Below are positions 9,063 to 31,897 of a stretch of 64,000 bases of DNA, piece by piece. A program made the translations under genes and the position numbers. The notes beneath the pieces are model-generated. The model made no database searches. It saw only the letters and a list, made by a program, of their open reading frames with translations, and was not told the origin of the DNA. Location: positions 121,525 through 185,524 of the forward strand of contig JASEFA010000002.1 in the NCBI GenBank assembly GCA_030019365.1, read 5' to 3'. Positions within the stretch are counted from its first letter, which is position 1. Every line of letters starts with the position of its first letter. The stretch comes from Bacillota bacterium. GTDB taxonomy: Bacteria > Bacillota > Sulfobacillia > JACIYH01.

Positions 9063-10838
9063 TCAAAGGTAGATCGGCTCGTGTGATAGTACCCTGACCC
9101 CATCTCGGTTAAGTCCGCTCACTCTGACGAACTCCTCGAGTTGCTGAGCGCTGTTGTGAAAAAGGATCACCTTCCAGCCAACATCAAGCAGGCTTTCTGT
9201 GAATGATAGAATCGCGGGTTCGGACGAGTGGAAACTCCAGTCCGGAGACGCAACTCTAAGTACCTGCCAAGGCTTCTCCTGATACAGTTCCCTCGGAAGA
9301 GAGCTCCTTAAGGCCAGCGTTCCTACTAGCAGGAGATTACTATCTTGGATCCGCCGCCGGACGGTATCCAGTCTAAGCACGTCCCTCAGCGTAACGAAAG
9401 CGACCACGTTCTCTCGCTCCCTGCACAGCCGGAGCGCACTCAGCGGGTATACCCTGTGGCTTTCAATAAAGTCCGACAAACTTCCCCTAAACAGTGAGGA
9501 AACAACTGGATCCTTAATTCTTCTGGCCAGAACATCTCCCCAAAGGTGTCTACAAAGTTCATAGGTGCGTGCGTTTATAAAGAGTTTGATGTGGGAGTCC
9601 CCCGGGGTGGCGCGTGTTAGGTGAAACGCCCTGAGGTAGGCGTAAACGAGGAGCTCAGGGCTATCGGAAAGGAAGAGTACGTTCCTCGTTTGGACCCCCT
9701 CGACCATTTTCTGCAGAACCAGTTCTGGCGAGTTCTCCTCGTTGATGACCACAGAGCCAAAAGCCTTCCCCACCAAGGCTCCGTCGAGAATCAGCCACTT
9801 GCGCGGAGTAAGAATCTTCTGCAGCTGTGAAAGGAGTCTCGGGAGGAAGTGCAAGAACCCGTTCCCAAGACAGCAGTCTCCGAGGTAAACCAGTGTGGTA
9901 CCGGCACCGGTATACACCAGCGCCTCAGACCCAGGGCAGTGAAATGTAGGGAAGAATGACAGAGGGTCTGGATATGATTGCCCTTCGGTCAAATAGACGC
10001 GGCCTACTAATGAATTCCTCATCTGTGGCGGAGCTAGGAGAGCAAGTTGGGCCAAGCTGGCTCGGGACATGAGAACCGGGACACCAAGACTCCTGAGTAA
10101 CTCCCACAAACCACCTGAATGGTCCCGGTGAAAATGAGATACAAAAACCGCCCTTAACTGATCAATCTCTGCCCAACGGACTCCGAACCCGGTGTCAAGG
10201 AGGATAGATCCAAGTTGGCCCTTGAGGAGGATGCTCTGACCAGTAGGTTCAGCCGACATATTCACGACCGATTCCAGCTTCCCGATGTCGACCTTGAGGG
10301 GCAAGTCCTTGCCCATAAAGCGCGCAAGGGTGGTACGTGGGACCCGCGCCCTGCTCCCGGTCACCAACGGATACCAGCCAGTTGCAAGCGTAACCTCCTC
10401 ACGCTTTAGGAACAACTCTTCCCTGACTGCCGGGACTGGTCGCAAGAATACGACCCCAATGCGGTAGTCGAAACAATCATGATCTTGCCTCATAAACCTC
10501 CAAAAACGGACCCATTCGATGTTAGCATATACAGCCGGCATCGTGACTCGGACATGGTGAAAGAAGGCTGCTTGCGGGCACGGAGGCATCGTTACCGCCT
10601 GCAAAGCCTGTCTGGCACGGCGAGTCGGGCCAAAAAACGGCTTCCCTTCGATCGTCTCATATGGAATACCGTTACACTCTCTGGCGATGATGCGCCCTTG
10701 GCGCGGCATAACCGTCTCGTCAAACCCCTTTACAGCTTTGAACCTGGGGTTCCCTGCTAGGAATCCCCGCCCCTGCTTCTCGTTCACCAGCCGACTCTCT
10801 TGAAGATCCCCACCAAGCCGAGGGCAGAGTGGTTCCAA
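9063..10838 (-). CDS. metallo-beta-lactamase-fold protein
   Basis: 591 aa as drawn from TTG 10838. The zinc-binding signature HFHRDHSGG (residues 236-244) sits in VFVSHFHRDHSGGLWELL, and a later metal-ligand aspartate is likely in LVYLGDCCLGNG. The ~190 residues before the fold and ~250 after it are unassigned. The start is uncertain: no strong ribosome binding site precedes 10838, and GTG 10787 is possible. It is the last gene of a minus-strand operon, 42 bases after the helicase stop. MBL-fold proteins include DNA and RNA nucleases (SNM1, RNase J) and hydrolases. I do not see clear beta-CASP motifs, so nuclease activity is a hypothesis from the helicase/ATPase context. Confidence 0.7.
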   Translation of the reverse strand: MEPLCPRLGGDLQESRLVNEKQGRGFLAGNPRFKAVKGFDETVMPRQGRIIARECNGIPYETIEGKPFFGPTRRARQALQAVTMPPCPQAAFFHHVRVTMPAVYANIEWVRFWRFMRQDHDCFDYRIGVVFLRPVPAVREELFLKREEVTLATGWYPLVTGSRARVPRTTLARFMGKDLPLKVDIGKLESVVNMSAEPTGQSILLKGQLGSILLDTGFGVRWAEIDQLRAVFVSHFHRDHSGGLWELLRSLGVPVLMSRASLAQLALLAPPQMRNSLVGRVYLTEGQSYPDPLSFFPTFHCPGSEALVYTGAGTTLVYLGDCCLGNGFLHFLPRLLSQLQKILTPRKWLILDGALVGKAFGSVVINEENSPELVLQKMVEGVQTRNVLFLSDSPELLVYAYLRAFHLTRATPGDSHIKLFINARTYELCRHLWGDVLARRIKDPVVSSLFRGSLSDFIESHRVYPLSALRLCRERENVVAFVTLRDVLRLDTVRRRIQDSNLLLVGTLALRSSLPRELYQEKPWQVLRVASPDWSFHSSEPAILSFTESLLDVGWKVILFHNSAQQLEEFVRVSGLNRDGVRVLSHEPIYL

Positions 10839-10880
10839 CCTCCCGCGACGTTGTTGGGTTGCCGGGAACCTTGCCCGCGC

Positions 10881-12515
10881 TCAACGGTAGACCCCCAATC
10901 CCGTAGGACCAGCCTGCCAGCCCAAACCGTGTTCTCCGGCTCTTGCGTAACGATCCTTGAGTTCGGGGGGAAGGAGGGGGAAGAACGCCCCCACGGGGCC
11001 GTGCCGGCGGAAGACCGCAGGGGAAGCTCTGCCTGCGAAACGGCGGACCCTGATCACCCCACGCGAGACAGATACCACAGTCCATGTAGAACGCCCCAGC
11101 ACGAACACCTCGTCGAAAACGGCGTGGACGGCTCCTATCTCCTTACCGGAATCGACGTCGATTACCCTGTACTCGCTTTGGTCTGGGATGTTGGAATGAA
11201 TCCGCCCCGCTTCGCCGGCATCCATGAGCTTCTGCGAGGGACACCACAGGCCCCGAGCCTGCTCCACCCAACCGTGGCCCTCCAAATTGCTCAGGACCAG
11301 TGTGGCCTCATACCCGGAGCAAAGTGGAGAAACCAAATCGATCAACTCTTCCTGGTTCAGGCCCCCCGGGTGTTGATAGATGCAGGATAGGGCTTGCTGG
11401 ACAACGACGGACAGGTCCGGCTCGTATACCTGAACCGGCAGTTCACCCGTTGCCGCCGCCTCGAACATGGCCTCCAGCACAGAGCGTTCGTCCGGCGAGG
11501 TGCAAAGCGCCGCCACCTGGACGGTGCCGCGCCGCCGATTGCCGCGCCCAATCCGCTGGAGCAGGGCCGTGATACTCCACGGCACCTCTGCAAGCACCAC
11601 CAGATCGATGTCACCGATATCGATCCCTACCTCCAGGGTCGACGTCGCCACGCACACGGCTACGTCGGCGTCCTTCATCAATGTTTCTGCCTCTTCTCGG
11701 AGCTGGCGACTGAGACTTCCGTGGTGCGCGACTACGGGGTAAGGGTGCCACACACGGGCCAGTTCAGACGCAGTCTGCTCGACCGACTCCCGCAGGTTAC
11801 AGAAGCAAAGTAGCTTCCTCCAGCCCTGAGCGCGCGCCAGCGAGTGCACCTCCTGGTGGGAATTCAGCAAGTGGTACACCATCTGGCGTGGCTCCCCCGC
11901 GCGAACCAGTTCGAAGGTCGATGCGTATCTGCTTGCTGTGTCCGCCGGCTGAGACAGGGTGGCAGACAACAGGTGCACCGAGGGTGGCGAAGTTGCCACC
12001 CTCTCCAGGCGGCGGAGCAGGACGCGCAGTTGGTCACCGCGATACGTGCCGTCAAGCAGGTGAATCTCGTCGACGATCACCACCTGCAGTTGCTCAAACG
12101 CACGGGGTCGCCTGCACAGCAGGGAATCCAGGGACTCCGGGGTCGTGATAAGGCACTCGGGGAGTTGGCTGGGCAACATGGGTCGGTCCCCGTGCTTGAG
12201 GGCGACACTGATACCCATCTCCCCGAGCGGACCAGCCACGCGAGCATGGGTGTCATTGGCCAAGGCGCGGGTCGGCACCACGTAGAGCATCGCCACGCCC
12301 TGACGACGTTCGCTGATGTAACGCTCAGCCACCGGAGCAACCACGGCTTCGGTTTTCCCCGATGCCGTGGGCGCAGCCACAGCCACGTTATACCCGTCAA
12401 GAACCTTGGGGATGGTAAGCACCTGAATGGGCGTGAACCTGCCGAAGCGCCCAAAGAACGGGGCCCAACTCCGCCTCAGCCGGCTACGGATCAATCTCTC
12501 TTCCTGCCGGGTCAC
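10881..12515 (-). CDS. superfamily II DEAD/DEAH helicase, Lhr/BrxHI-like
   Basis: 544 aa. Motif I is APTASGKT (48-55), motif II DEIH (149-152), motif III SATLSQ, and motifs V/VI are TSTLEVGIDIGDIDLV and LLQRIGRGNRRRG. A winged-helix-like region follows (SCIYQHPGGLNQEELIDLV), then a barrel-like end. This is the Lhr-type layout used by BrxHI in type 2/6 BREX, though shorter than full-length Lhr. Its start overlaps the stop of the upstream BrxD-like gene (ATGA). Expected activity: ATP-dependent 3'-5' translocation or unwinding of nucleic acid. Assignment to BrxHI rather than another Lhr-like helicase rests on the neighbouring BrxD-like ATPases. Confidence 0.75.
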   Translation of the reverse strand: MTRQEERLIRSRLRRSWAPFFGRFGRFTPIQVLTIPKVLDGYNVAVAAPTASGKTEAVVAPVAERYISERRQGVAMLYVVPTRALANDTHARVAGPLGEMGISVALKHGDRPMLPSQLPECLITTPESLDSLLCRRPRAFEQLQVVIVDEIHLLDGTYRGDQLRVLLRRLERVATSPPSVHLLSATLSQPADTASRYASTFELVRAGEPRQMVYHLLNSHQEVHSLARAQGWRKLLCFCNLRESVEQTASELARVWHPYPVVAHHGSLSRQLREEAETLMKDADVAVCVATSTLEVGIDIGDIDLVVLAEVPWSITALLQRIGRGNRRRGTVQVAALCTSPDERSVLEAMFEAAATGELPVQVYEPDLSVVVQQALSCIYQHPGGLNQEELIDLVSPLCSGYEATLVLSNLEGHGWVEQARGLWCPSQKLMDAGEAGRIHSNIPDQSEYRVIDVDSGKEIGAVHAVFDEVFVLGRSTWTVVSVSRGVIRVRRFAGRASPAVFRRHGPVGAFFPLLPPELKDRYARAGEHGLGWQAGPTGLGVYR

Positions 12516-13810
12516 GCCAGCACCTCGGCCACGGGCCGACGGTCTCCGAAGCGCATGAGGTCCAATGCCTCTACGGCCGCCTTCACGAACATCCTGGTGA
12601 GACCTCCACGGTCCTTGACCCGGCGGTAAATCAAGTCAACGATTGGGTCCTTCTCCAGGAATCCATAAGCGCTGTCGTAGATGAGGCAGATCTCCTCGAA
12701 CAAACCCTTAAGTGCCTGCTCGCCGAGCGGCTCGAGGTCAAGCCTTACTGGCGTCCCGGACTTGGACAGGTAGTCGAGGAGCCACACCGGCGTGAATGCA
12801 CACACGACCTTCAAACCGCTCGGATCACGGTACAGGAAGGGGATTTCGGAAGCGGAACCCATGCTACAGTAATCAAACCCCGAGCGGAGCGGGGGCCCCG
12901 CCATTTTCGGGTCGTTGGCAGCGGTACGCATCAGCGCTTGCAGGAAGTTGAGGCCCTTAAGAAACTGGTACCCATGGCCGGCCTGTGTTGCCGCCTCCGC
13001 CTCATCGATAAGTACCAGCAGTCCCTTCAGGTCCATTACCTGTAGGGCCGCCCAGCCAAGAGCGCTTAACAGGTAGCAGTATATGTTGGCGGCGGTGGTA
13101 AAGTCGTATAAAGATGGGAACTGCGGGTAACTGACGTCCGCAACCGGCCGCGGCGTACTTTCCCTGGCTTCAATCCACTCCCACAGGCACTCGTCGGGGG
13201 AGCGAGCCAGATGCTGGAAGTATTCATGGTCGGTAAGGCCGCCTCTTGACAGGACTTCGCGGAGGAACTCGCGAAAGCCGCCGGGCTGCTGCTCCCCATG
13301 CCGGGGATAACGAAAGCTCTGAATCAAGCTCGCGTACACGCGCTTGGGTTTGTGAAACGGCGTCTCCGAGGGATCCATGTCCACAGCGGCGACGGCAAAC
13401 CCTTCCCGCAAGGCCCGGCCGCGCACATATTGGACGAGATGGCTTTTCCCTACACCATAGGCTCCCACCAGGAAACAGACTTGGTGTTGGCCGTCGCCGA
13501 GCCAGTCCCTCAGCGCACGTGTCTCACTGTCCCTGCCAAACGTGAACTCATCTACCAGGTCGTATGGCACCACTCCAAGGCGAAAGGCTTCAATCATCCT
13601 GCGGTGTCTGAAGGATTCGTCGGCGGGCTCGCGGGGGGCCGGGCTGACCCGTGCAGGTAACATCAACGGCGGTACATCGCTCAGCTCGTCCACTCTGACC
13701 CAACGCTTGCGCCCATCTGCGAACTCAACCAGTGACTCAAAACCCCTGTGCCGGGTCCGAAGCACCCTCCCCCGCCCGAATCTTCTGTGGGATACCAGGC
13801 GCCCCACCAT
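12512..13810 (-). CDS. BrxD-like ATPase (DUF2791 family) with N-terminal SH3-like domain
   Basis: 432 aa. Walker A is GAYGVGKSH (from residue 116); Walker B is LKGLLVLIDEAEAATQ (near 260). These belong to the DUF2791/BREX ATP-binding group of STAND-like P-loop ATPases. The first ~45 residues (LVSHRRFGRGRVL, VEFADGRKRWVRV) look like the small beta-barrel (Tudor/SH3-like) found at the ends of RapA- and UvrD-type helicases, an addition not found in its upstream paralogue. It begins six bases after that paralogue's stop and overlaps the helicase start. Inferred role: ATP-dependent loading or regulatory partner of the helicase, possibly as a heteromer with the paralogue. Confidence 0.75.
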   Translation of the reverse strand: MVGRLVSHRRFGRGRVLRTRHRGFESLVEFADGRKRWVRVDELSDVPPLMLPARVSPAPREPADESFRHRRMIEAFRLGVVPYDLVDEFTFGRDSETRALRDWLGDGQHQVCFLVGAYGVGKSHLVQYVRGRALREGFAVAAVDMDPSETPFHKPKRVYASLIQSFRYPRHGEQQPGGFREFLREVLSRGGLTDHEYFQHLARSPDECLWEWIEARESTPRPVADVSYPQFPSLYDFTTAANIYCYLLSALGWAALQVMDLKGLLVLIDEAEAATQAGHGYQFLKGLNFLQALMRTAANDPKMAGPPLRSGFDYCSMGSASEIPFLYRDPSGLKVVCAFTPVWLLDYLSKSGTPVRLDLEPLGEQALKGLFEEICLIYDSAYGFLEKDPIVDLIYRRVKDRGGLTRMFVKAAVEALDLMRFGDRRPVAEVLA

Positions 13811-13816
13811 AACACG

Positions 13817-15043
13817 CTACCTCAAGTCGTCGACGGAAGGCGGAACACCCTTTTGCCTAAGATGATGGAGAGCTCTCACAATAGTCTTCACAAACAACCG
13901 CTTATAGCCCTCGTCTGCATAATGCTGATCAGCTGCGAAGCCGGCGACACTGGTGATGGTGGCGGTCAAATGCTCGTCGCGGAACTGGCACCCATAGGCA
14001 ACCCGGTATACTTCAGCCAGCTTCTGGCCGATGGACTCCAGGAACTCCACTGGGTCGGAAACAACGCTCTCCAAGTTAATCCGTACTCCCGCCGGATTCA
14101 GCCCACCGAAAACAGTGTCAAGCCTCTGTTTGAGAGCCTCGTATATCTGAGTCCGTCCCTCCAGGAAATTGTCATCTGGCACCGCATAAAAAATCATGGC
14201 TCCCTGAAAAGACGTGTGACCGCAGGCGTCGATGACCTCCCTCAGATTGCTGAGGTGCTGGTCTCGCTGTCGCGTCGAAAGGCTGGGCACTCGTTCTGCT
14301 TCGTCGAGCAACACAACAAGACCGTTGTACCCCATTTGCCTGAGACACTGGACGAGGGAGCGGATCATGGTGAACGCTGTACTCCTGTCGATCCGCTGGA
14401 GAATGCCGTGCCGTGAGTGTGTCTTACGGTCATAGGACTCACCGGTCAACCATTGACATATGTTCTCGAAGTCGTCCTCGCGCCTCTGGGCAAGCGCACG
14501 GAGAGATGCCTTTATCGCCCTCAGGAAACTCAAACTTTCTACACCGCTGAGGCGTTCCACGTCCGCCTCCAGTTCCGAGTACAAAGGTTCACCGCTCAAG
14601 CCTTTACTGCGGCATTCCTGGAACTTCATGGCGTACCAGCCGCGCAGAAAGCTCGCCATGCCATACTCGAATCCGCTGAGGAGATCCTCGGGGGTTAACG
14701 ACGGGAGTATGCCGCGAGCTATGGCACCATAAACCAGATCCAGTCGGTGAAAGGGGCTCTCGCCCGGGCTCAGGGCGACGTAGGAGACCACGAAGTTATG
14801 CTTCCAGGCAACATCACGGATTGAGTACAGGAGGTGCGTCTTTCCCCCACCATACATACCGATGACCAACTTGAAGGCGGAGCCCCCTTGCGGGATAAAC
14901 GAAGAGAGGTATTCATCCTCGATTATTGCCAGGTACGGCTCAAAGCCCACGCTGAAGAACTGGAAGCCGTATTCGGGCGGGACGCCGTGGGCCCCCACCG
15001 TGTCGATGATGCGGCGGGCAACGGCCTGGGTGAGTTCGCTCAT
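13817..15043 (-). CDS. BrxD-like ATPase (DUF2791 family)
   Basis: 408 aa. Walker A is GMYGGGKTH (from residue 62) and Walker B YNGLVVLLDEAERV; the C-terminal helical part is typical of the BREX ATP-binding group (DUF2791). It is clearly related to the next gene in the operon but lacks that protein's N-terminal barrel. Its start overlaps the stop of the coiled-coil gene (ATGA), so translation is probably coupled. BrxD is a type 2/6 BREX component and usually single-copy; two adjacent, diverged copies suggest a heteromeric machine. The molecular function is not established for the family. Confidence 0.75.
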   Translation of the reverse strand: MSELTQAVARRIIDTVGAHGVPPEYGFQFFSVGFEPYLAIIEDEYLSSFIPQGGSAFKLVIGMYGGGKTHLLYSIRDVAWKHNFVVSYVALSPGESPFHRLDLVYGAIARGILPSLTPEDLLSGFEYGMASFLRGWYAMKFQECRSKGLSGEPLYSELEADVERLSGVESLSFLRAIKASLRALAQRREDDFENICQWLTGESYDRKTHSRHGILQRIDRSTAFTMIRSLVQCLRQMGYNGLVVLLDEAERVPSLSTRQRDQHLSNLREVIDACGHTSFQGAMIFYAVPDDNFLEGRTQIYEALKQRLDTVFGGLNPAGVRINLESVVSDPVEFLESIGQKLAEVYRVAYGCQFRDEHLTATITSVAGFAADQHYADEGYKRLFVKTIVRALHHLRQKGVPPSVDDLR

Positions 15044-15879
15044 GGCATCTCCCCCTCGAATCTCAGGTGAGAGTAAGCGGTGCCCTTCCCCGATTCATCG
15101 TCAGGAACCCACAGGAAGTCCTGACGCCGCTTGGTGTACTCCCTCGTGGCCACGGCCAGGCGCAGGTGCGTGTCAGAAGGTGATACCCTGAGAAACCGGG
15201 TCAGCCGAAACAGGTCGTAACTGAAATCAGCGCGTCCATAGCTCCGGTACAGTTCCTTGCGGGGATCCTGGTGGAAGCGGGCGTCCTGCACGAGGTGGGC
15301 CACTTCTCCCAGGATGGCAGTTATGGGGACCCCCTTCGCGACTGCCGCCGACACCTGACGGGCGTAAGCCTGGCGTAGCTTACCAAGGAACTCGGGCTCA
15401 GGGATACCCGAACCCAGTCTCTTCATAATGCCCTCAAGTCGGGAGGCCATATCAGCCGGGCGCAGGGGACATTCCTCAAGCCTCTCCTGCTTGGGGCCAT
15501 ACCACACCGTGGCCTTGCCGCGCACGAAATCCAACTGCAGAGTGAACAGCCCCGACTTGAGTTCCGGGTACTGCCCGCGCAGTGGGAACCCCTTCTCCGC
15601 CAGCGCCGCCTCCAATTCCCGTCCGAAGCGCACCCTCAATTCGCTCTCGGCCTGTGAGAGTAGGGGTTCGTACTCCCCAACCCAGTGGCGCAACCCATCG
15701 GTGTCGAGGGGCGCTTGATCCAGTTCCTCGATCAGCCTGACCAGCTTGTTCACGCGCGACCGTAACTGGGCAACGTGGTCTCCACGCTGTTGGTCTAGTC
15801 TCCGGATCTCTTCGTACAGTTTGAGAGCTCCGTCCAGCCTCTTCTTGTACTCACCAAGTGCTTGACCCAAATCACTCAA
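15040..15879 (-). CDS. coiled-coil protein of unknown function, first gene of BrxD/helicase operon
   Basis: 279 aa. Residues about 10-60 form a probable coiled coil (KLYEEIRRLDQQRGDHVAQL). The remainder is mixed alpha/beta with LDFVRGKATVWYGPKQ and a conserved-looking C-terminal half (TRFLRVSPSDTHLRLAV). I do not recognise a family. Position and overlapping stop/start with the first BrxD-like ATPase show it belongs to that operon; it may be a structural or substrate-recognition subunit. The organisation is reminiscent of the TerB-N/TerB-C-associated DNA-processing operons that also pair DUF2791 ATPases with helicases, but I see no TerB motif here. Confidence 0.6.
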   Translation of the reverse strand: MSDLGQALGEYKKRLDGALKLYEEIRRLDQQRGDHVAQLRSRVNKLVRLIEELDQAPLDTDGLRHWVGEYEPLLSQAESELRVRFGRELEAALAEKGFPLRGQYPELKSGLFTLQLDFVRGKATVWYGPKQERLEECPLRPADMASRLEGIMKRLGSGIPEPEFLGKLRQAYARQVSAAVAKGVPITAILGEVAHLVQDARFHQDPRKELYRSYGRADFSYDLFRLTRFLRVSPSDTHLRLAVATREYTKRRQDFLWVPDDESGKGTAYSHLRFEGEMP

Positions 15880-19403: not shown

Positions 19404-21440
19404 TTACGACAGAGAGAGGCCCTTTTGGGCGGCGGCCATGGGGTCCTTGTAGAAGATGGGGTCGACGTGCTCGATGATGTCGGAGGGTACGTCAAGGAGG
19501 TGGCGCTTGTTCTCTATGGGGATCAACGCGCGTCTGGCCCCGTTGTCCATGGCCACACGGAGGGGCTCGGCCAGGGAGCGCACGGGCTTGGGGTTACCCT
19601 GCACGGTCATATCGCCGAGGATCAGCATGGCAGGCAGCACGGGCAGCTTCTTGATGGCGGAGTAGACGGCCAGGAAAAAGGCCACGCCTGCGTCACAACT
19701 GACGCGGGTACCGAGGAGGTCGATGCCTTCTACGTAGAAGTCGGTGGTGTCCAGCTGGTGACCGATGCCCAACTCCACCTTGTGGCCCTGCATGTAAGAG
19801 AAGGCGCGGTTGAGGGCTTCCTTCATGCTGGTGTCCATGCCGCCGGCCACCTTAAGCTTACCAGTGCCAGTAGACGTGCCTACCTCGATGCGGAATAGGG
19901 CCACCCTGCCGTCGTCGCCGACTGAGGCAGCATAGAGGGAACCAGGAGCCAGCGGGTCGGGTGAAATCAGGTTACGGCCCCCCTCTTCGGGCACGCCGAC
20001 GAAACGTTCCTCCCTCGTTTCCTGGTCGATGAACGAGAAGCTGGTCTGGTGATACTCGAACGGCCCGAGTTTCTTGAGCTGCTCCTTCACTCGCCGTCGG
20101 CCCTCGAGGGCCATTTCGAGGTACTCCCGGAGTTCGTCCTTCGTCCATTCGCCGTGCGGGTGCAGGAGCTTGAGGTAGCCGGCCACGGTCTTGCGCACGG
20201 CCTTGGCGTCCCGCGCATTGAGGTGGGAGCCCAGGGCGAAGTGGCTGTCCATGGCCTCGGCGAGGTTGTGCTTGCGCAGTTCCTTAAGAGCCTCTGCCAG
20301 ATAGTCAGAGACGAAGCCGTAGTGATCGGTCAGGAACTCGTTCCGGACCTTGGGGATCTCCCACCCCGGCAAATAAAAGTGAATGCGGTCCAGGAAGGCC
20401 ATATCCTCCCGTATGACTTCCGGCAGGGGGGCGAACAGGGTCGAGCTGCGCACCATCACCTCCACCGGCTGGTTGGTGTTGCCAAACATAGCCACGCTGG
20501 CGCTGGCAGACAGGGACTCCTTGCCCCTTGCGAAGGAACCGGACTCGCAGTATGTCTTAAGGGTGGTTATGACCTCTTTGGGCATTTTCTCCAGATCGGC
20601 AACCTCGTCGAAGGCTATGGCATCCCACAGGCCTACCAGACCCATCTTGCCGCTGGCGATGTTGTAAAAAAGATTGGCGACCGTGGTGGGCCCGGTAAGC
20701 AGGATGACGTAGGGAGAAAGCTCCTGGTAAACGAAGGATTTGCCCGTTGCCCGGGGACCCAGTTCGATGAAGTTGTAGTTTGACTCGACCATGGGGATGA
20801 GGCGGGCGAGCAGTAACAGCTTGAGCCGCCGCTCGAAGTGGGTAGGTTCCAGCCCGATGCTGCGGATCAGCAGGTCGAGCCACTCATCGGTACCAAATTG
20901 GGTCCGGCCCCGCCGGAACTCGTCGAGACGCATCTCCGCCAGCTGTATTGGTTCAAGAGTGTCGATCCAGAAGGGGCTGCGCCGTCGGGACACGGTGTCG
21001 TCATAGCTGTGGCGTATCTCGACACGAGCCCAGATCCCACCTAGCAGCAGGCGATCATACTGCCTCACGTACTCCTCAGGGATGTGAACATGTCTGTGCC
21101 CGAAATGGACGAGCTCAGCCCAGTACTTGTTGTCCTCGGATACGTAGCGCACCTTGACCTTGTCTATAAAAGAGTGGCGACCCTCCTGCTGGACTCTGGC
21201 CTGAGCCTTCATGGCCTCATCGGGGCGTACGTAGTTCTCAGCCACGGTATCATTGACCACTTTGAGCCCCAGTTCCAGGGCCACTGGATCATCCGTGGCG
21301 CAGTATTTCCCGAGAAGGTACTCGAGGACGAAGACCGGAACGTTGGCCCCGACCTTCACCTTGCGGACCAGGTCCTTGCGCACCACCCGGCCGGGGAAAA
21401 CCTGATTGGCCTTCAGATCCAGCGCGTCTGTGGCGACCAC
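19404..21440 (-). CDS. brxL: BREX protein BrxL (AAA+ / Lon-like)
   Basis: 678 aa, GTG start with GGGGAGGGG upstream. Walker A is GPRATGKS (228-235) and Walker B IAFDEVADL (about 275-283); a Lon-protease-like C-terminal domain ends IENKRHLLDVPSDI. Both domains match BrxL, the last gene of type 1 BREX operons. In E. coli and Acinetobacter work BrxL is a DNA-binding AAA+ multimer needed for phage exclusion rather than a classical protease. Where Lon has its catalytic GPSAG, this protein reads SCDAGVAFFLAVYSA, so serine protease activity of the Lon type is doubtful. It begins 33 bases after the pglZ stop and closes the operon. Confidence 0.93.
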   Translation of the reverse strand: MVATDALDLKANQVFPGRVVRKDLVRKVKVGANVPVFVLEYLLGKYCATDDPVALELGLKVVNDTVAENYVRPDEAMKAQARVQQEGRHSFIDKVKVRYVSEDNKYWAELVHFGHRHVHIPEEYVRQYDRLLLGGIWARVEIRHSYDDTVSRRRSPFWIDTLEPIQLAEMRLDEFRRGRTQFGTDEWLDLLIRSIGLEPTHFERRLKLLLLARLIPMVESNYNFIELGPRATGKSFVYQELSPYVILLTGPTTVANLFYNIASGKMGLVGLWDAIAFDEVADLEKMPKEVITTLKTYCESGSFARGKESLSASASVAMFGNTNQPVEVMVRSSTLFAPLPEVIREDMAFLDRIHFYLPGWEIPKVRNEFLTDHYGFVSDYLAEALKELRKHNLAEAMDSHFALGSHLNARDAKAVRKTVAGYLKLLHPHGEWTKDELREYLEMALEGRRRVKEQLKKLGPFEYHQTSFSFIDQETREERFVGVPEEGGRNLISPDPLAPGSLYAASVGDDGRVALFRIEVGTSTGTGKLKVAGGMDTSMKEALNRAFSYMQGHKVELGIGHQLDTTDFYVEGIDLLGTRVSCDAGVAFFLAVYSAIKKLPVLPAMLILGDMTVQGNPKPVRSLAEPLRVAMDNGARRALIPIENKRHLLDVPSDIIEHVDPIFYKDPMAAAQKGLSLS

Positions 21441-21473
21441 CCGACGCCCCTCCCCGCGGCACGGCCCTGATTC

Positions 21474-24026
21474 TCAGTGAACGAGATCCACCGGGACAGA
21501 AGGCAAACTGGCCAACCTCGTGCCGGAAAGCGCGTCCAGTACCACGATGTCGGCCAGCCCGGAACGAAGCTCCGTGTCCGTCACCTGAAAGATAAGAGCA
21601 TTGGGCTCATTGGGCTGGAGCTTTACCTGCCGGGACGCAGGGTCGTAACCCTGGTTGGCTGCGACCAGGATCCCGGCTCTCTTACCCCCCACGATAAGTT
21701 CGGCGGTCAGGGTCAGGGGTTCGGGCACCAGGCTCACGTAGGTAACCTGCACGCTGAAGATACGGTTGGTGATCTTCCCCGGCGGGAACGCGAGCGCCAG
21801 TTGCGGCACACCCTTTTGTTCACTCGGCGGCGCTTTCGCTTTCACCACAACTGAAACCACCGGGATCACCATTTCCTGCAATGTCAGGCCCCCGTGACAG
21901 TAGCCGCCGCCCCCCAGGATGAAGACGCCAAGCCCTACGGGAAACGCCAATTCGAGCTCGCCTGCGATCCCCAGTTTGACCGACGGGACCCTCACGAGAT
22001 CGGCGCCCGTCCTCCCACCTCTCCCGGCCCAGGACCGCCGACGGAGGCAGACGGTATGCCCGCCCGGTGGCTCCACCTTGTTGGCCAGGTCGGCTTCGGG
22101 CAGGAAGAGGTAGCCGTGGTCGGCAGCGAAAACCTGACGCTCGAAGCCCACCCGCGCCAGCGCACGCGAAGCCCGCGCCAGATCGTCCAGGATATCGCTC
22201 ATGTATTTGTGAGCCTGGCGATCATTTCCCCCCTCGCCGAACTCATCCAGCTCTCTAGAGCGCACGACGACCAGGTTCGCCCCTTCAAGCCTGCGCCCCA
22301 GTCTGCGGGTCGAGAGATCGAGCAGCTCGTCAAGCGTAAGGTCCACCGCGGATGGGTACCGGCTTCGTATCAGTTCTGCCCGCTCAGCAGGGCCCCCAGA
22401 AACCCGGCCCCTTACCAGCACCGCAAGCTTCCCGTTCCTGTCAGCCAGCTCCATTCCTTCTTCGGCACCCGGCATGAGAGCTGCCATTCCCACTTCGGTG
22501 ATTCCGGGGAGGATGCCCAGGTACGGTTCGCACGCTGCTTCGCCATCACGCCCCAGGCGGCCGGCAAGGTCAACCCCCATCTCGTAACGGAGGGCGTCCA
22601 CGAGGAAGTAAGCCGTCCTCTCTCGATCAAGGTGCGGGCGTACGTGCCGTTCAAACACCATGTGCTGCTGGGGCAGGCGGCTGAGGTCGAAGTCCTCTAT
22701 TTGCAGCGCCTCACAAAACCCTTCGGCAAGGGCGATGACGGCCTGGGTATACGCCGCGCGCGCGGCCTCCGCGATGCTGCTGATGAAGTCCTCGTCATCG
22801 ACGTACCGCAGTTGCTGCTCCAGCAGGCGGTAAGCGCTATCAAGCCGATACCAGCCCCCCGCAAGCCGGTTCCGGCTCGAGCCTGCGTAATTGCGGATCC
22901 AGTGCTCGACTGGTTTTCCCTTCGAGCACCTGACCTCCTGCCCCACCCGGGAAGCCTCCCGCAGCACTGTTATGGCATAAGTTACAGCGTTCCAGGCCAC
23001 GTTGCGGACCGCCGTCCGCCGGACCCAGAAGCTACTCCGCGCCTTCTCCACCAACACCTCAGCTTCGTCCAACTTACCGCTCTCTATCATGCGGCCCGCC
23101 ACCTCCAGGCGGGTACGCTCCTGGAACGGGAACGTATCGCTGCCCGCACCGGCCTCCCCGGCGGACGCCATAGCGGCCAGGTTGAGGTCGCGTTCGGTCG
23201 CCCAGGCCAGCGCAGCATAGCCTTCCGCGAGAGAACCGGTGTCCCGCATGTAGTGGCAGACGGCCCGGCAGGCCTCGACGTCCTGGGGACGCTCCGGAAC
23301 AGGCACCTTTCCCAGGGACTCGCGTAGCCGTCCGGAGTGTTCGCCGAGATCGTGTAGCAGCTCTCCCAGCAACACGTACCGCGCGAGTGCCTGTCTCAGG
23401 CCAAGGGCATCGGCGGCAGGCACGTCGAGTCCGAAGTGGTCGCGGACATACCTGCGCATGTCGTCCAGGGCCTCCCGGTCGATCACTGCCTGGAGGGCAC
23501 CGTCGTCAAGCAGGAATCGCGCGGCCACTTCGTGCGGACCGACGTCACCGAAGATCACCGCCACCAACCCACCGTCACTGCGCCTTTCTGCAGCCGCGTC
23601 GAGGTCGGCCAGCGTGACGGTAGGGTTCTCGAGGAGCGCCCTGATCTCCGTCTCGGGGAGGACCCCCCTGAGGGGCTCGCGCCCAAGCCCGGCCAGGTCT
23701 TCGCCGGGCCCGTCACCGAACCGACAGCCAGCCTTCCAGAGCGGCAGCAACAGATCGTCGTACTCCCTCGGACGCTCCCGGGGAACATACACGAGCAGCG
23801 TCTTTTGCCCCCCGACCAGGTCCCGGGCGTTGGCCAGCAACCAGCGATCAGCTTCGTGCCTCAGACGCAGCCAGGAGTCCTGCCGGGCAAGGACGGTCAG
23901 GCCGGGCCAACGTAACGTTTCGGCAAGCTCGCGGAAGGTGCCGGTCCGGTCGTACCACACCGTCAACCCCGCCCGCCGTACGCTCTCCTCGATCACCTTC
24001 CGCACGTGGTCGCTTACCCGGCCCAT
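21474..24026 (-). CDS. pglZ: BREX alkaline-phosphatase-like protein PglZ
   Basis: 850 aa from ATG 24026, which has GGAGGAG eight bases upstream; the open frame extends further but without support. The PglZ core is visible: AYFLVDALRYEMG, LGILPGITEVGMAALMPG and, later, VFAADHGYLFLPE, the metal-binding aspartate/histidine regions of the alkaline-phosphatase fold. The N-terminal ~350 residues are helical; the C terminus is a beta-rich domain (YVSLVPEPLTLTAELIVGG). PglZ is the hallmark BREX component, found in every subtype. It starts 22 bases after pglX stops. Confidence 0.93.
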   Translation of the reverse strand: MGRVSDHVRKVIEESVRRAGLTVWYDRTGTFRELAETLRWPGLTVLARQDSWLRLRHEADRWLLANARDLVGGQKTLLVYVPRERPREYDDLLLPLWKAGCRFGDGPGEDLAGLGREPLRGVLPETEIRALLENPTVTLADLDAAAERRSDGGLVAVIFGDVGPHEVAARFLLDDGALQAVIDREALDDMRRYVRDHFGLDVPAADALGLRQALARYVLLGELLHDLGEHSGRLRESLGKVPVPERPQDVEACRAVCHYMRDTGSLAEGYAALAWATERDLNLAAMASAGEAGAGSDTFPFQERTRLEVAGRMIESGKLDEAEVLVEKARSSFWVRRTAVRNVAWNAVTYAITVLREASRVGQEVRCSKGKPVEHWIRNYAGSSRNRLAGGWYRLDSAYRLLEQQLRYVDDEDFISSIAEAARAAYTQAVIALAEGFCEALQIEDFDLSRLPQQHMVFERHVRPHLDRERTAYFLVDALRYEMGVDLAGRLGRDGEAACEPYLGILPGITEVGMAALMPGAEEGMELADRNGKLAVLVRGRVSGGPAERAELIRSRYPSAVDLTLDELLDLSTRRLGRRLEGANLVVVRSRELDEFGEGGNDRQAHKYMSDILDDLARASRALARVGFERQVFAADHGYLFLPEADLANKVEPPGGHTVCLRRRSWAGRGGRTGADLVRVPSVKLGIAGELELAFPVGLGVFILGGGGYCHGGLTLQEMVIPVVSVVVKAKAPPSEQKGVPQLALAFPPGKITNRIFSVQVTYVSLVPEPLTLTAELIVGGKRAGILVAANQGYDPASRQVKLQPNEPNALIFQVTDTELRSGLADIVVLDALSGTRLASLPSVPVDLVH

Positions 24027-24048
24027 GTTCTCGTCTCCTCCAGCCCGA

Positions 24049-27000
24049 TCACTGCCGCAGGTAACGTGTACCACGTCCCCTACCCACCGTACCCACAACT
24101 CCTCTGGCGGTCAAGCCCCGCAGGACCCGCGACAGTCCGCCACTGTCAAGCCCGGTCAGTTCCTGCAACTCGGTCCGGGATCGCGCAGTCCCAGGGGGAA
24201 GCACGTGGAGCACCCTCCGCTCCAGCTCCGATTCATCTGCCCCCCGCCCACTGCCGATGCTGACCGATGCGGCGCCCTTCGCCGAACGAAGCGGCCACAG
24301 CCGCCGCGCCATGGTTGACCAATCGTAACGACCGGCAGCCAGCTCTTCCCAGGTCCGCTCTGCCTCGCTCCACGGTACAAGCTTCCGCAAAGGAGCGACA
24401 TTGATCAATACCCCGTCGTGCAGGTCTGGTTCGTACCCCACCTCTTTCAAGCCCGAAGCCGCCTCCGCCTTGAGACGCAGGACCTCCACCAGGCGGTCAC
24501 GGAACTCCCCGATCTCCTCGCACAGAGCACGCTGCTCGTCGATCTTGCGCAGGAGAGAACGAGTTGCTGCACCGCCCCGCTGTCCACCGTTAGCCTGCAT
24601 CATCAGGGCCTCAAGTGCCTGTTCCTCCCGGTCGAGGCGCGGCTGTACGTAATCATGCAGCACGGTGAACAGCGTGTCCCGGCTCAGGCGATGGTAGTAG
24701 AGCCAGACCCCGTACCGCCGGTTCGTGCTACACAGATACCAGTAGATGGGCGCCTTCCGCCGGCTCCGGGAATACCGCTTGATGTGGAAATCGAAGAACC
24801 CCCGGGGACTGCGGAAGAACTCCCTCAGGTCGCCCACACCCAGCATCTCGCAGGCCTCCCGCTCTATGGCGTGTGCGCGGTCCCCCCAAAGGTACTCGAG
24901 CACTTCGCGTACACGCGCGACTATGTCATCCCGGTGCCCCTCCTCGTCCACCAGGATGCCATTCCAGGCAATGCGGATTGGATACTCGTCATCGCTGATC
25001 GTTGGCTTCTTCACTACCCCCTCAGGGGGCAGATGAATAGCACTCGGCCGCGCACGCAACCACTCTTCGCTGACAATGCCCCCCGGCTTAGCCGGCAACC
25101 CGTCCGGCCCCACCAGCATCCCCGGCGGACACACCGGTGGCGGATCAAACAGATCGGGCAGCATCGGGGCCAAACGCGTCTCGCGGCCTACGCGCACGTC
25201 CCAACGCCCCATTGCGCAGCCTACACAATACGACAACAATCCCGCGAGCCATTCCTCTTCCCGAGGAGCGTTCGATCCGGGTGGCAGTTCTCCGCTTCCC
25301 TCTAGCGGCCCACTGTGGTCCTTCAGATTGTGGCTTACCGTCGTTTCAACCAGAACTCGGTCCTCAGGGGAGACCCGGTACGTGTTCCAGGAGACTTCGT
25401 CTACTTCGTCAGCATGGAGGGAGACGTGAATCTTCAGAGCCTCAACATGGCGAAACTTCTCGAACACCGTGTTCAGTGAATTCACACTCGCCAGCGTCTC
25501 CCACGGGGTGACAAACATACGCGCCAACTCATTCAACGTGTCCCCTTGACGAGCTAGACCCGCCAATGTCAAGCCCAACCGTGCAAGGTTCGGCCCCAAA
25601 TCAACCGGGACGGGCGTACGTTGTATCACGCCGACCTCCCAGGACCCTACCGCCATCTGCAGGGAAACAAGAGTGCGGAACGCAGAAGAATTCCCAAGCG
25701 CAAGCAAGCTTGGGGCAAGCGCATCATCGAATAGAAACAGACCCGGACCTTTGTGCCCAAAAACGCACCCGCAAGGAAGCATCCGCAGGTTCAGACCCTT
25801 TATGGTGCGTAGGGTCCAGGTTAGGCCGGGCCGGAAGTAGTACCGCTCGTTGCGGATGAAGGCACGGGCGAAATGGCGGATCTCGTGGCCGTTGTTCTCC
25901 CAGTTCACAACGAGGTGGATGTCGGCGTAGTACGGGGAGTATTCCCCGCCCTTGGCGAAGAAGGCCCAGCGCTTGCCCGACGACAACTGCCTCAGCATCT
26001 CCTGGCGGAACTCGTCGTGGCCGGGGTACTTCCATCCGGCGGGGAACGGGCCACCCGCGATGGTTTCGGGAGGAACCTCCCAGGCGGCCCTGACGAAACG
26101 GAAGTCGTCCGCCGTGGCAAGGCCCTGCTTTACGGTGCCGGCGTAACCCTCGAAGGGGGGGAATTCCTTGAACTTGTTGCGAAGGCTTTCGCTGACCCAG
26201 TAGGCGAAGGGCGAACCCGGTACCAGGGAGAAAGACGCGGGACGAAGCCGGTAGACGTGGGGAGGCCGGTGACCATCGGCGAGTTCGGCAATCGTCGCTT
26301 CGAGAGCCGATGCCTTTTCGGCCGGATCGGTCTTGAGCAGCCGGACGAAGCACGCGCCGTCGTCCGGATCCTTGGTTCCCCTCGGGCGCTCCACGACGTA
26401 CGCAGCTGCCTCCACCATGGCATCGTCCATTACCCCGAAACCGAGGTCGGCGAGAAGCTTGAACTCGCCCTCCTGGAGCAAGACCTCCTCGCGCCACCGC
26501 TGGTACGTGGTAAGGAAGAATCCCGTCCGGCTGGTGATCACACCCAGGCGCCCGCCTGGCGCGAGGAGTTGCAGCGCTCGTTCTACAAAGGCCGCGTAAA
26601 TATCGTTTTTGCTCCGCGGGTACTTGCGCTGCATGTAGTCTTTGGCCAGCTTCGTCCCCTCTCCAAACGGCGGATTCATGAGAATCACGTCATAGTTCTT
26701 GGACATCACGTCAATGAAGGCTATGCCGGCCGCTGCGTCGTCACGGAACAGCTTCCGGGCGTATTGGCCGCCGTTGGCCACTGCCTCCGCGTGTTCTCTG
26801 AGTGCGTCCAGCAGTACTTCCTCCGCCTGCCCCCACGCCGAGTCGGGGTTGAAGGCGGCCAGCGGGAACTTATCCCGGTGCCTGTTGCACGTCGCCTGCA
26901 CTTCCTCTTTGACCTGGAGGAGGCTTCCGGCCTCGGAGGCGAGCCGCATCATTTTCCAGACGTCTGCCGCCACGTCGTGCAGGCGAGCGGGAAGCCGGGG

Positions 27001-28275
27001 GAGGAACTCCCTCAGATTACCTGGCATGGGCTCCGCGGTAACCACGTTGGTCCGGGTGATACGCGGTCGTTGACCGCGGGGAATGCCCCACCAGAGGGGT
27101 GATCGCTGGGCCCGCAACCACAAGGCGAAGGCAGCGATCTGGGTGGCCCGCAGGTCAATGTCTACACCGTGGAGGTTGTTCTCCAGGATGAGCACGGGGA
27201 TCTGGCGCCGGTATTCCGCCCGGTCGGGGAAATCCGCCCGGAGGCGCGGCCCCAGGTCGGGATCGTCGTAGGCCTCCTCGTACATTACCTCCAGCAGGTC
27301 GAAGCAGTAGAGCAGGAAGTGCCCGCTACCGCAGGCGGGGTCAAGGATGCGTATCTCGCGAGGGTCTTTCTTTGATCCGGGGCGGACCAACCGCGCGTCA
27401 TCTTCCGTATAATTGCCGGTCCTGGCAACAGCCGCCGGGGGACTTGCGGTTCCGTCAAGGAATAGCTCGTCGGGGAAACGAATCATGAAGGTACACCGGT
27501 TCGCCAGCTCTGTCCGACCACGCCGCATTTCGTACCATAGTCGCCCAAGGGTGTTGTCGACCAGAAACCGCACCACGTAACGCGGAGTATAGAATTGATT
27601 GCGGATGGCCAGTTCGTAGGAGCTCCGGGGAACCTGGCTTTGCCTGGCCGCCTGTCGTTCCTCCCTGGGGGTGAAATACTGGTACACCCACCCGATGGTC
27701 TCGTCCTCCTGCCACGCCACATACAGTTCTGGAGAGGAAAGGATTTCCACGGCCCCGTCCACGGTAGCACCGTCGGGAAACACCAAAGAACCCGGGGTGC
27801 GGCGGTCAAACAGTACACCTACCTCTTCCCCCACCTCATCGAACAGGGCCTCGAGGTAATGGCGGTAGGCGCGCCAGACGTCTTCACCGAACGCGCCAGG
27901 CGCGATGCGGCGGAACAGTGCGAACCCAGCGGACGCCCGACCCCGCGAAACCGACTCGGGGATCAGGTCCCTCTGCTCCATCAGGCGTAACGCCACCAGG
28001 CGGTTCAGGTACGTGAAACAGATCTCCCTGGTCAGGTGCCTCACTGCTTCGGCAGCAGTATGGCCATGTGCTGCCTCGTGCTGCAGCACCTCCCGAAGTT
28101 TCTCCGCGACTCCCCGTTCCTTTTGGTCAAGGTGCCGCAGGGCCGCTACGGGGTCGGTGGTCCCGTCCCGCCGGATGCCGTAGCGTCCCTCAAGCTGGCG
28201 TGCGATGTCCTCGCTGAGTAACTCCCGACACCGGACCACGGCTTTCCTCAGTGCAGCCCGCACTGCCTGTTCCAA
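24049..28275 (-). CDS. pglX: BREX adenine-specific DNA methyltransferase PglX
   Basis: 1408 aa from TTG 28275, which has GGAG ten bases upstream and lies seven bases after brxC ends; no ATG is available in frame near the start, and GTG 28305 is an alternative overlapping brxC. Motif I is DPACGSGHFLLY (from 312) and motif IV NPPFGEG (from 534), an N6-adenine methylase. PglX methylates the non-palindromic BREX site on host DNA and specifies self versus phage. The last ~65 residues (ELERRVLHVLPPGTARSRTE, RVLRGLTARGVVGTVGRGRG) add a winged helix, an extra DNA-binding module relative to the common PglX layout as I remember it. Confidence 0.93.
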   Translation of the reverse strand: MEQAVRAALRKAVVRCRELLSEDIARQLEGRYGIRRDGTTDPVAALRHLDQKERGVAEKLREVLQHEAAHGHTAAEAVRHLTREICFTYLNRLVALRLMEQRDLIPESVSRGRASAGFALFRRIAPGAFGEDVWRAYRHYLEALFDEVGEEVGVLFDRRTPGSLVFPDGATVDGAVEILSSPELYVAWQEDETIGWVYQYFTPREERQAARQSQVPRSSYELAIRNQFYTPRYVVRFLVDNTLGRLWYEMRRGRTELANRCTFMIRFPDELFLDGTASPPAAVARTGNYTEDDARLVRPGSKKDPREIRILDPACGSGHFLLYCFDLLEVMYEEAYDDPDLGPRLRADFPDRAEYRRQIPVLILENNLHGVDIDLRATQIAAFALWLRAQRSPLWWGIPRGQRPRITRTNVVTAEPMPGNLREFLPRLPARLHDVAADVWKMMRLASEAGSLLQVKEEVQATCNRHRDKFPLAAFNPDSAWGQAEEVLLDALREHAEAVANGGQYARKLFRDDAAAGIAFIDVMSKNYDVILMNPPFGEGTKLAKDYMQRKYPRSKNDIYAAFVERALQLLAPGGRLGVITSRTGFFLTTYQRWREEVLLQEGEFKLLADLGFGVMDDAMVEAAAYVVERPRGTKDPDDGACFVRLLKTDPAEKASALEATIAELADGHRPPHVYRLRPASFSLVPGSPFAYWVSESLRNKFKEFPPFEGYAGTVKQGLATADDFRFVRAAWEVPPETIAGGPFPAGWKYPGHDEFRQEMLRQLSSGKRWAFFAKGGEYSPYYADIHLVVNWENNGHEIRHFARAFIRNERYYFRPGLTWTLRTIKGLNLRMLPCGCVFGHKGPGLFLFDDALAPSLLALGNSSAFRTLVSLQMAVGSWEVGVIQRTPVPVDLGPNLARLGLTLAGLARQGDTLNELARMFVTPWETLASVNSLNTVFEKFRHVEALKIHVSLHADEVDEVSWNTYRVSPEDRVLVETTVSHNLKDHSGPLEGSGELPPGSNAPREEEWLAGLLSYCVGCAMGRWDVRVGRETRLAPMLPDLFDPPPVCPPGMLVGPDGLPAKPGGIVSEEWLRARPSAIHLPPEGVVKKPTISDDEYPIRIAWNGILVDEEGHRDDIVARVREVLEYLWGDRAHAIEREACEMLGVGDLREFFRSPRGFFDFHIKRYSRSRRKAPIYWYLCSTNRRYGVWLYYHRLSRDTLFTVLHDYVQPRLDREEQALEALMMQANGGQRGGAATRSLLRKIDEQRALCEEIGEFRDRLVEVLRLKAEAASGLKEVGYEPDLHDGVLINVAPLRKLVPWSEAERTWEELAAGRYDWSTMARRLWPLRSAKGAASVSIGSGRGADESELERRVLHVLPPGTARSRTELQELTGLDSGGLSRVLRGLTARGVVGTVGRGRGTRYLRQ

Positions 28276-28282
28276 GGTGCCA

Positions 28283-31200: not shown

Positions 31201-31897
31201 TCTTATGCCCGCGGGCCCAGGAATCGACCGACGGCCAGGTGTGAGGATCGAGTATGTGCATTATGCGGCTCGCCCTACCGAAGGCCACTGCCACGTTGGC
31301 CCTTCCCTCCACCCAGGGGTGGCCGAAGGTCTCAAAGTAAAGCCGCTCGAATTCTGCCAGGCGCCCTTCCCTTTCCAGATTGATCTCCAGTTCGGCCAAA
31401 TCCAGGTCGTGCGAGTAATGGACGGTACGGAGGAGGGCCCGATAGGCCACCAGGGTTATCTTTTCTTCGCCCACCCGGACCAGGGGGTCCTCGGCCATGT
31501 CGAAGAATACGACGAGAGTAGGAATGTCCCGCCTTGCGCGGCCCAGCAGAACGCGCACCCGATCGTCAGCCAGGCGATCCGCCAGCCGGTCAGCGGCAGA
31601 TATGCCCAGGATCGGCCGGTCTGCCAGTGCCAGCCCGAGGTACTTGGCAAACGACGACTTGCCCGAGCCGAAGAAACCCGACACCCACACTCCAATACCC
31701 TCGTGGGGCTTCAATGGGGTCTCCACATAACGCTCTAAAACTCGCAGATACGCGTTCCTGATGGCCGGTGTCGCTACGTACTCATCCAGCTCCTCTGCGA
31801 CGACGGTCTCGTCCGTCTGGTGGAGCTTGATGACTTCCTCGATGCGCCGACGGATGTCGCGGGCGAAGAGTGACTCGATAGTACCTGCCGGGCTCAT
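28283..31897 (-). CDS. brxC: BREX ATPase BrxC (DUF499-like P-loop protein)
   Basis: 1204 aa from ATG 31897 (GAGGTG upstream); the frame extends 67 codons further but over brxB. Walker A is GFFGSGKS (74-81), in the typical WVSGFFGSGKSSFAKYL of BrxC. The N terminus, IESLFARDIRRRIEEVIKLH, is also characteristic. The rest is a long helical protein with coiled-coil segments (residues about 640-720). BrxC/PglY is an AAA-like ATPase needed for BREX methylation and defence. Its start lies four bases after the brxB stop. Confidence 0.93.
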   Translation of the reverse strand: MSPAGTIESLFARDIRRRIEEVIKLHQTDETVVAEELDEYVATPAIRNAYLRVLERYVETPLKPHEGIGVWVSGFFGSGKSSFAKYLGLALADRPILGISAADRLADRLADDRVRVLLGRARRDIPTLVVFFDMAEDPLVRVGEEKITLVAYRALLRTVHYSHDLDLAELEINLEREGRLAEFERLYFETFGHPWVEGRANVAVAFGRASRIMHILDPHTWPSVDSWARGHKKADLGARDVAERAMELVARRFPQARAVVFVADEVGQYVARSTDKMLDVQGLVQALGHVGRGRAWFVATSQEKLDVIVSQLDERRVELARVRGRFPREIEVDLAPSDIFEVTSRRILAKKPEARAIIEGLYNRHCAELQVNAKLHSDVYAKPLDRAEFVNLYPFLPYQIDLLIRIVGGMRGSQATALQTGGAIRTIVKLAQQVLIHQHVNLASQPIGHLVTLDMFYPLLEGLIASEKRQDIDQIDRTFGVGSMESRVGRAITLLEYVKDPARTVENLAAVLYPALGAPSVKSEVEQALDRLVAARLVQATDEGYSLLTPAAKSWEEERNKQKVYLGDVKRIEREVVAVIAEGLPGCQLEGLREFKPCVVVDGSAVSKGDVEIRLFLVDETQFDSERESKRQLSRQTANENLIFWVAALTRDIEELERDIALSEKMIQDRDRPHVKGEEATLLNAEKTKRDRNKSRLETALRAALLRGECYFRGVAHPLGTTGDLAQALRGVLQDAVPAIYDRFRVAAVRLKGDEASRLLKDADVSGLPAVLYPGGGGLGLVEVHGSQRRINQHHEGLEAVTEFIRRRRQFGERTTGQALEQHFGRPPYGWDGDAVRLFVAAAFRLGRVEVVHGGRRLRRRDEPGVIEVFEKTPNFRGSVFQLREAIDITTLMTAVAAVERLFGDSPHIEEGAIAAVVRKRLPAEREVALRVAATLRAVSLPGAERAGEIERTYQALLSGSDEDLVRTLAAEAQSLQEDRDWLRLMAESLTEGNLATLRRARRAVQVLGQQLLADNPSDVGVEEVTVRINTVLSHDSFCTQLDQLATDARYLEDRYQSRYSELRERLCQAVEDAADEVRAHPRWPELAETDQQAVLSPLLRLLPPAPAHSADDDASRSMVTHETAGPTLQELGLRLQTVSAAKERVLADLHRAVAPPEQRVERVKVTRVVGREMATAEDVERAVNQLRDFLLKLVQEGVRIILE

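What the first reader, a model, noticed from the sequence alone, without database searches (positions are those of the whole stretch)
9063..15879. Five-gene operon: coiled-coil protein, two BrxD-like ATPases, Lhr-like helicase, MBL-fold protein
The genes overlap or nearly abut and lie in a defence island. Tandem diverged DUF2791 ATPases with a helicase and an HxHxDH hydrolase do not match a named system I know; TerB-associated DNA-processing operons are the closest relative by memory. The MBL protein could be the nuclease of a helicase-driven defence machine.
Basis: partly seen in the sequence, partly recalled or inferred. Interest (0 to 1): 0.8.

Follow-up and report, generated by a model that had tools for sequence, protein, structure and literature searches.

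The report
Four-gene ATPase–helicase operon beside BREX
Next to a BREX antiviral gene cluster sits a four-gene set (an unnamed coiled-coil protein, two BREX-type ATPases and an Lhr-like DNA helicase) that recurs in the same order in many unrelated bacteria without BREX, and in one bacterial phylum is inherited like a core gene, which is unusual for a relative of antiviral systems.

Summary
The operon is real, but it has four genes, not five. A (unnamed coiled-coil family), B and C (BrxD-like ATPases) and D (Lhr-like helicase) overlap or abut. The same A-B-C-D order recurs on plasmids, in Poribacteria, Bacillota and other phyla, and above all in candidate division WOR-3. Most carrier genomes have no BREX-size PglZ, so it is not a BREX appendix. 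No PADLOC, Pfam or NCBIfam model covers the set; A has no model at all. The closest known kinds are Shango (TerB–SngB–SngC) and the BrxD–BrxHI pair of type-2 BREX. The D helicases form their own clade beside BrxHI+SngC, and A is not TerB-like. The MBL gene is not conserved: none of 32 loci with a visible gene after D has it; Poribacteria L087 has a PLD nuclease there. C has a PcrA/UvrD-Tudor-like N-terminus. In WOR-3 the B tree matches the RpoB tree (17 of 21 splits), B diverges only about 1.4 times as far as RpoB, and in one clade it is as common as Mfd. Best reading: B and C act as an ORC/Cdc6-type loader that puts helicase D on DNA; in the window probably a Shango-like defence module, in WOR-3 perhaps core DNA maintenance.

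The parts
15040..15879 (-). A: unnamed 279-aa protein; N-terminal helical coiled coil, small beta sheet and a helical C-terminal part in a confident model. Conserved first gene of the set.
   Evidence: No Pfam, NCBIfam or PADLOC match and no consistent Pfam family in 33 members; a family profile finds it before the tandem ATPases in 22 loci; AlphaFold2 model pLDDT 93.7; no PDB fold match at E<=0.001.
13817..15043 (-). B: BrxD-like (PF10923) AAA+ ATPase 1, Walker A GMYGGGKTH and Walker B LVVLLDEAE intact.
   Evidence: PF10923 5e-45; 64-66% identical to three Poribacteria-phylum genomes, 56% to a genome of the same class.
12512..13810 (-). C: BrxD-like ATPase 2, with a ~45-residue N-terminal Tudor-like domain (VxHPxFGxGxV, as in PcrA/UvrD); Walker A GAYGVGKSH and Walker B LLVLIDEAE intact.
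   Evidence: PF10923 2e-19; motif conserved through 33 relatives; PF21196 PcrA/UvrD tudor matched in one member, E 0.005.
10881..12515 (-). D: Lhr-like SF2 helicase (544 aa) related to BrxHI and SngC; the short C-terminus is natural.
   Evidence: PADLOC BrxHI 1e-69, SngC 4e-67; best PDB match Lhr 5v9x 2.7e-29; short orthologues of 523-536 aa in L139, L087, L181, L090.
9063..10838 (-). E: metallo-beta-lactamase-fold protein, intact HxHxDH; neighbour, probably not part of the conserved set; start codon uncertain.
   Evidence: Lactamase_B 5e-8; weak RNase J, Artemis and RNase Z similarity; no orthologue beside D in any relative; AF2 model unusable, pLDDT 33.
19404..34016 (-). Neighbouring type-1-like BREX locus (brxL, pglZ, pglX, brxC, brxA, brxB/E-like): context, not part of the set.

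Best explanation
A-B-C-D is a distinct four-gene DNA-processing system, sister to Shango and to the BrxD-BrxHI pair of type-2 BREX. Proposed mechanism (inferred): B and C, two old paralogues of the ORC/Cdc6-type BrxD family, form a mixed AAA+ ring or loader with A as scaffold or DNA adaptor. C's Tudor-like domain tethers the complex to a nucleic-acid machine (RNA polymerase or DNA, as in PcrA/UvrD). ATP hydrolysis places the Lhr-like helicase D on DNA, and D unwinds or remodels it. In the window, inside a BREX island, it most likely works as a Shango-like antiphage module, with variable and optional nucleases nearby (PLD in Poribacteria, possibly the MBL here). In WOR-3 the same set is a vertically inherited core operon and may serve DNA maintenance. 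Shown: gene set, conservation, separate clades, BREX independence, vertical inheritance in WOR-3, no fixed MBL. Inferred: complex, loading, substrate, antiphage effect.
For: Syntenic four-gene operons on Aulosira and Desulfomonile plasmids. 43 loci found with a profile of B, ABCD order in most. Trees: all D in one clade (100/100) apart from BrxHI+SngC; B and C are old separate groups. Most carrier genomes lack a BREX-size PglZ. Defence neighbours outside WOR-3 (OLD, GmrSD, DUF1156 methylase, PLD) against housekeeping neighbours in WOR-3. B tree against RpoB: r 0.90, 17/21 splits shared. WOR-3 census: 60/147 genomes, 50/55 in one run where Mfd scores 51/55. BrxD is described as an ORC-Cdc6 AAA+ and a possible loader of BrxHI (PMC12839542). 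Tandem BrxD genes are also found with a BrxL-like protein in place of D, and BrxL is MCM-like (PMC10164562).
Against: No experiment exists. A's fold gives no functional clue. Antiphage function is inferred from kin and neighbours only, and the WOR-3 pattern speaks against pure defence there. The Tudor assignment rests on a motif and one weak Pfam hit. Several WOR-3 loci have no D within the fetched flank, so D may not always be linked.
Confidence: 0.6

Rival explanations
1. It is simply a divergent Shango system in which SngA was replaced by A and SngB was duplicated.
For: Same plan (helper, BrxD-type ATPase, BrxHI/SngC-type helicase); D matches SngC at 4e-67; Shango operons L146, L147, L150, L151 have this order; a Paenibacillus Shango has a PLD nuclease two genes on, like Poribacteria ABCD.
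Against: A shows no relation to TerB-N SngA; SngC is sister to BrxHI, not to D, and SngB groups with BrxD, not with B or C.
Confidence: 0.2
2. A housekeeping DNA-replication or repair operon (helicase loader plus helicase) that spread secondarily into defence islands.
For: Clade-wide, single-copy, RpoB-congruent and slowly diverging in WOR-3, among housekeeping genes; ORC/Cdc6-like ATPases with an Lhr-type helicase (Lhr is linked to DNA repair: own knowledge); PcrA-type Tudor in C.
Against: Patchy elsewhere, on plasmids and beside BREX, OLD, GmrSD; absent from both same-genus genomes; Mfd is present in the same genomes, so it does not replace Mfd.
Confidence: 0.3
3. The five genes form one nuclease-armed defence machine with the MBL as effector.
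For: E follows D on the same strand, HxHxDH is intact, weak similarity to RNase J and Artemis; a PLD nuclease holds the same place in Poribacteria L087.
Against: No MBL next to D in any of 32 loci; gap of 42 bp or more and uncertain start; no relative of E in 100 related genomes beyond generic MBLs, in plasmids or viral contigs.
Confidence: 0.1
4. An accessory of the neighbouring BREX locus.
For: Same strand, next to BREX here and directly downstream of a BREX in Aulosira.
Against: Most carrier genomes lack a BREX-size PglZ; IS21 and an opposite gene separate it from brxL in the window.
Confidence: 0.08

Closest known systems
Shango (SngA TerB protein, SngB ATPase, SngC helicase)
   Same: Helper gene + BrxD-family ATPase + Lhr/BrxHI-type helicase, in that order, in defence islands; antiphage activity shown in P. 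aeruginosa (PMC10250203).
   Different: TerB protein absent, unrelated A instead; two ATPases instead of one; helicase in a separate clade; vertical core-gene pattern in WOR-3.
BrxD-BrxHI dyad of type-2 BREX
   Same: BrxD-family ATPase next to a helicase of the same broad family; a loader role has been suggested (PMC12839542).
   Different: No PglW/PglX/PglZ in the unit; two ATPases plus A; a plasmid can hold both units side by side (Aulosira).
Lhr helicase
   Same: SF2 core; best PDB match.
   Different: Shorter, and encoded with A, B and C.
ORC/Cdc6 loaders with MCM or BrxL motors
   Same: BrxD family classed as ORC-Cdc6 AAA+ (PMC12839542); tandem BrxD genes also occur with a BrxL-like protein in L066, L183, L184, and BrxL resembles MCM (PMC10164562).
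   Different: Analogy of plan only; loading has not been tested.

Membership tests
Shango | SngA with TerB domain | tested here: not met
   A has no PADLOC or Pfam hit; hhalign of the A family with a Pantoea SngA, probability 2%.
Shango | SngB ATPase | tested here: inconclusive
   B hits SngB 2e-25 but BrxD better (6e-37); the tree puts SngB with BrxD, not with B or C.
Shango | SngC helicase | tested here: inconclusive
   D hits SngC 4e-67 and BrxHI 1e-69 but lies outside the SngC+BrxHI clade.
BREX type 2 (BrxD-BrxHI) | Part of a locus with PglZ, PglX, PglW | tested here: not met
   Most carriers have no BREX-size PglZ; the window's BREX is type-1-like and 3.5 kb away.
BrxD family (PF10923) | PF10923 over cut-off with intact Walker motifs | tested here: met
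   B 154 bits, C 70 bits, cut-off 22.2; motifs seen in the sequence.
TerB-associated operons | TerB, TerB-N or TerB-C domain | tested here: not met
   None in A-E.
Beta-CASP MBL nucleases (for E) | HxHxDH plus beta-CASP motifs A-C | tested here: inconclusive
   HxHxDH intact; weak RNase J and Artemis similarity to the MBL part only; no beta-CASP Pfam hit; model unusable.
PcrA/UvrD Tudor (C N-terminus) | PF21196 or GDxVxHxxFGxGxV motif | tested here: inconclusive
   Motif in the family, Pfam in 1 of 33 members at 0.005.
Antiphage defence system | Protection against phage when cloned | not testable with these tools
   Needs an experiment.

The most novel reading that the evidence does not exclude
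A-B-C is a general bacterial motor-loading module (two ORC/Cdc6-like ATPases plus a new adaptor family) that can drive different DNA motors (Lhr-like helicase, MCM-like BrxL, SNF2 or XPB-type helicases). In WOR-3 it is an essential or near-essential core DNA-maintenance operon, and the related BREX-2 and Shango ATPase-helicase pairs share its origin.
Probability: 0.3. Interest if true: 0.88.

Novelty: new variant of a known kind. Interest (0 to 1): 0.68.

Why it matters
BrxD and BrxHI/SngC helicases are known only as parts of antiviral systems whose mechanism is open. A stable four-gene relative with a new conserved subunit, without BREX or TerB, and inherited like a core gene in a whole clade, gives a small system in which to test whether BrxD-type ATPases load helicases, and suggests that the module may also serve the host's own DNA.

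Tried and rejected
MBL as conserved effector. BREX appendix. A as a TerB protein or a known fold. Truncated helicase: rejected, close relatives have the same short D. Replacement of Mfd in WOR-3: rejected, Mfd is present in the same genomes. Viral carriers of B or E: none found. AF2 of E alone: unusable. Rfam: nothing in the window. Terminator or promoter between D and E: the scans found neither, which says little. Literature: no description found of the tandem BrxD set, though only open-access text was searched.

Full report
What is there. On the minus strand of the window five ORFs follow each other: A 279 aa, B 408 aa, C 432 aa, D 544 aa, E 591 aa. A/B and C/D overlap by four bases and B/C are six bases apart; E starts at least 42 bases after D, its start is unclear, and codon statistics give no firm answer. 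B and C are BrxD-like (PF10923), D is an SF2 helicase, E has an MBL domain with HxHxDH, and A matches nothing. The two ATPases are the only PF10923 proteins in the genome. A type-1-like BREX locus lies upstream on the same strand, separated by an IS21 istB and a DUF5343 gene.

The set recurs as four genes. Plasmids of Aulosira laxa and Desulfomonile tiedjei carry A-B-C-D in the same order. Each of B, C and D of the window finds its counterpart at the same position as best hit there, D with 3e-68 against 3e-41 for the true BrxHI next door, and A matches the Desulfomonile A at 4e-4. A scan of 398 genomes of the phylum for PF10923 showed about 20 with tandem BrxD-like genes. A profile seeded with three A proteins found a gene of the same family in front of the tandem ATPases in 22 loci. 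A scan of a genome collection with B found 43 more loci, nearly all with 39-55% identity, in WOR-3, Poribacteria, KSB1, Zixibacteria, Latescibacterota, Acidobacteriota, Deltaproteobacteria and Bacillota; most show A-B-C-D. In 47 close loci, 31 are complete and many others are cut by contig ends; median gaps are 0, 10 and 29 bases.

E is not part of it. In 32 loci where the gene after D can be seen, none has HxHxDH. The closest relatives have a PLD nuclease (L087), a small PUA-like protein (L126/L078; by eye), an HTH protein (L139) or an SF1-helicase-like protein (L181; by eye). E itself has no close relative in 100 related genomes, plasmids or viral contigs and resembles RNase J, Artemis and RNase Z only weakly.

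Not BREX. Among 37 carrier genomes, PglZ-domain hits in WOR-3 are about 510 aa, which is the size of PorX-type regulators (own knowledge); BREX-size PglZ appears in only a few (G000, G485, G458, G515, G489). G054, of the same class as the window, has none and carries A-B-C-D with B 56% identical.

Relation to known systems. ML trees of 63 ATPases and 24 helicases: D proteins of all ABCD operons form one clade (100/100) apart from BrxHI+SngC (100/100); SngB groups with BrxD (97/87); B and C fall in separate, old groups. Shango references came from plasmids and BREX-2 references from others. A shows no similarity to SngA. The 2026 BREX survey (PMC12839542) describes BrxD and BrxHI as a single dyad of type-2 BREX, calls BrxD an ORC-Cdc6 AAA+ and proposes helicase loading; I found no mention of tandem BrxD genes in its main text. 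A helicase phylogeny in PMC12278908 puts SngC, BrxHI, DruE and DpdJ in a potential antiphage clade.

Structure. A folds with high confidence (33 sequences, pLDDT 93.7): three long N-terminal helices, a small beta sheet, a helical C-terminal part with strands. No PDB match reaches E 0.001. C has an N-terminal VxHPxFGxGxV domain that resembles the PcrA/UvrD Tudor domain. D's best solved relatives are Lhr helicases.

Core-gene behaviour in WOR-3. All 147 held genomes of the phylum were searched: 60 have B or C; in one contiguous run of the listing 50 of 55 have it, against 51 of 55 for Mfd. I drew the limits of that run after seeing the result, and that the listing follows kinship is my assumption. 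Neighbours are transporters, glycosyltransferases and other housekeeping genes, conserved within subclades. The B tree agrees with the RpoB tree over 24 genomes (distance correlation 0.90, 0.92 in WOR-3 alone; 17 of 21 splits shared against at most 2 in random relabelling), and B's distances within WOR-3 are on average 1.4 times RpoB's. This is not what a fast-moving defence gene usually shows. Elsewhere the set is patchy (absent from both same-genus genomes), on plasmids, or beside OLD, GmrSD and BREX genes.

Variants. Two BrxD genes, with A before them in L183 and L184, also occur without D and are followed by a BrxL-like protein (L066, L183, L184; about 30% identical to the window's BrxL), in genomes with no PglZ (G009) or only sub-cut-off PglZ matches in ~505-aa frames (G079, G087). 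A-B-C also occurs near SNF2 or XPB-type helicases. BrxL is structurally close to MCM (PMC10164562). ORC/Cdc6-like ATPases next to an MCM-like or Lhr-like motor fit a loader-plus-motor plan; this is inference.

Limits. The PADLOC copy is of 2023 and DefenseFinder was not available; many carriers are MAGs; I found no experiment on this set.

Noticed in passing
window 19404-34016: Complete type-1-like BREX locus: brxL, pglZ, pglX, brxC, brxA and a 257-aa gene in the brxB place that hits only BrxE weakly.
   Followed up: partly
window 6846-8980: HerA-like ATPase split over two overlapping + strand ORFs in different frames (6846-8171, 8045-8980), as by a frameshift, downstream of an N6/N4 methylase fragment (4409-5683).
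   Followed up: no
window 17299-18755 and 37396-39850: IS21 istB-like ORF between BREX and the operon, overlapping a DUF5343 (PDC-M34A) gene; an istB-like relative with an upstream ORF at 37396-39850 looks like a second IS21 element.
   Followed up: no
L066 1155-5759, L183 963-6213, L184 4631-9833: Variant unit with BrxD-like ATPases (A seen in L183 and L184) followed by a BrxL-like protein, without BREX-size PglZ in the genome: possibly a separate undescribed system.
   Followed up: partly
L060, L061, L064: Variant with three BrxD-like ATPases in a row between A and the helicase.
   Followed up: partly
L068 624-10000: A-BrxD-BrxD followed by an unknown gene, an HSP70-like protein, another unknown and a different MBL protein.
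   Followed up: no
L030 (Deinococcus psychrotolerans plasmid NZ_CP034187.1): Near-identical repeated BrxD-type ATPase, helicase and HNH cassettes, one with a shortened ATPase, next to McrBC.
   Followed up: no
L151 9864-10445: Paenibacillus Shango operon with a PLD nuclease two genes after SngC, parallel to the PLD nuclease after D in L087.
   Followed up: no
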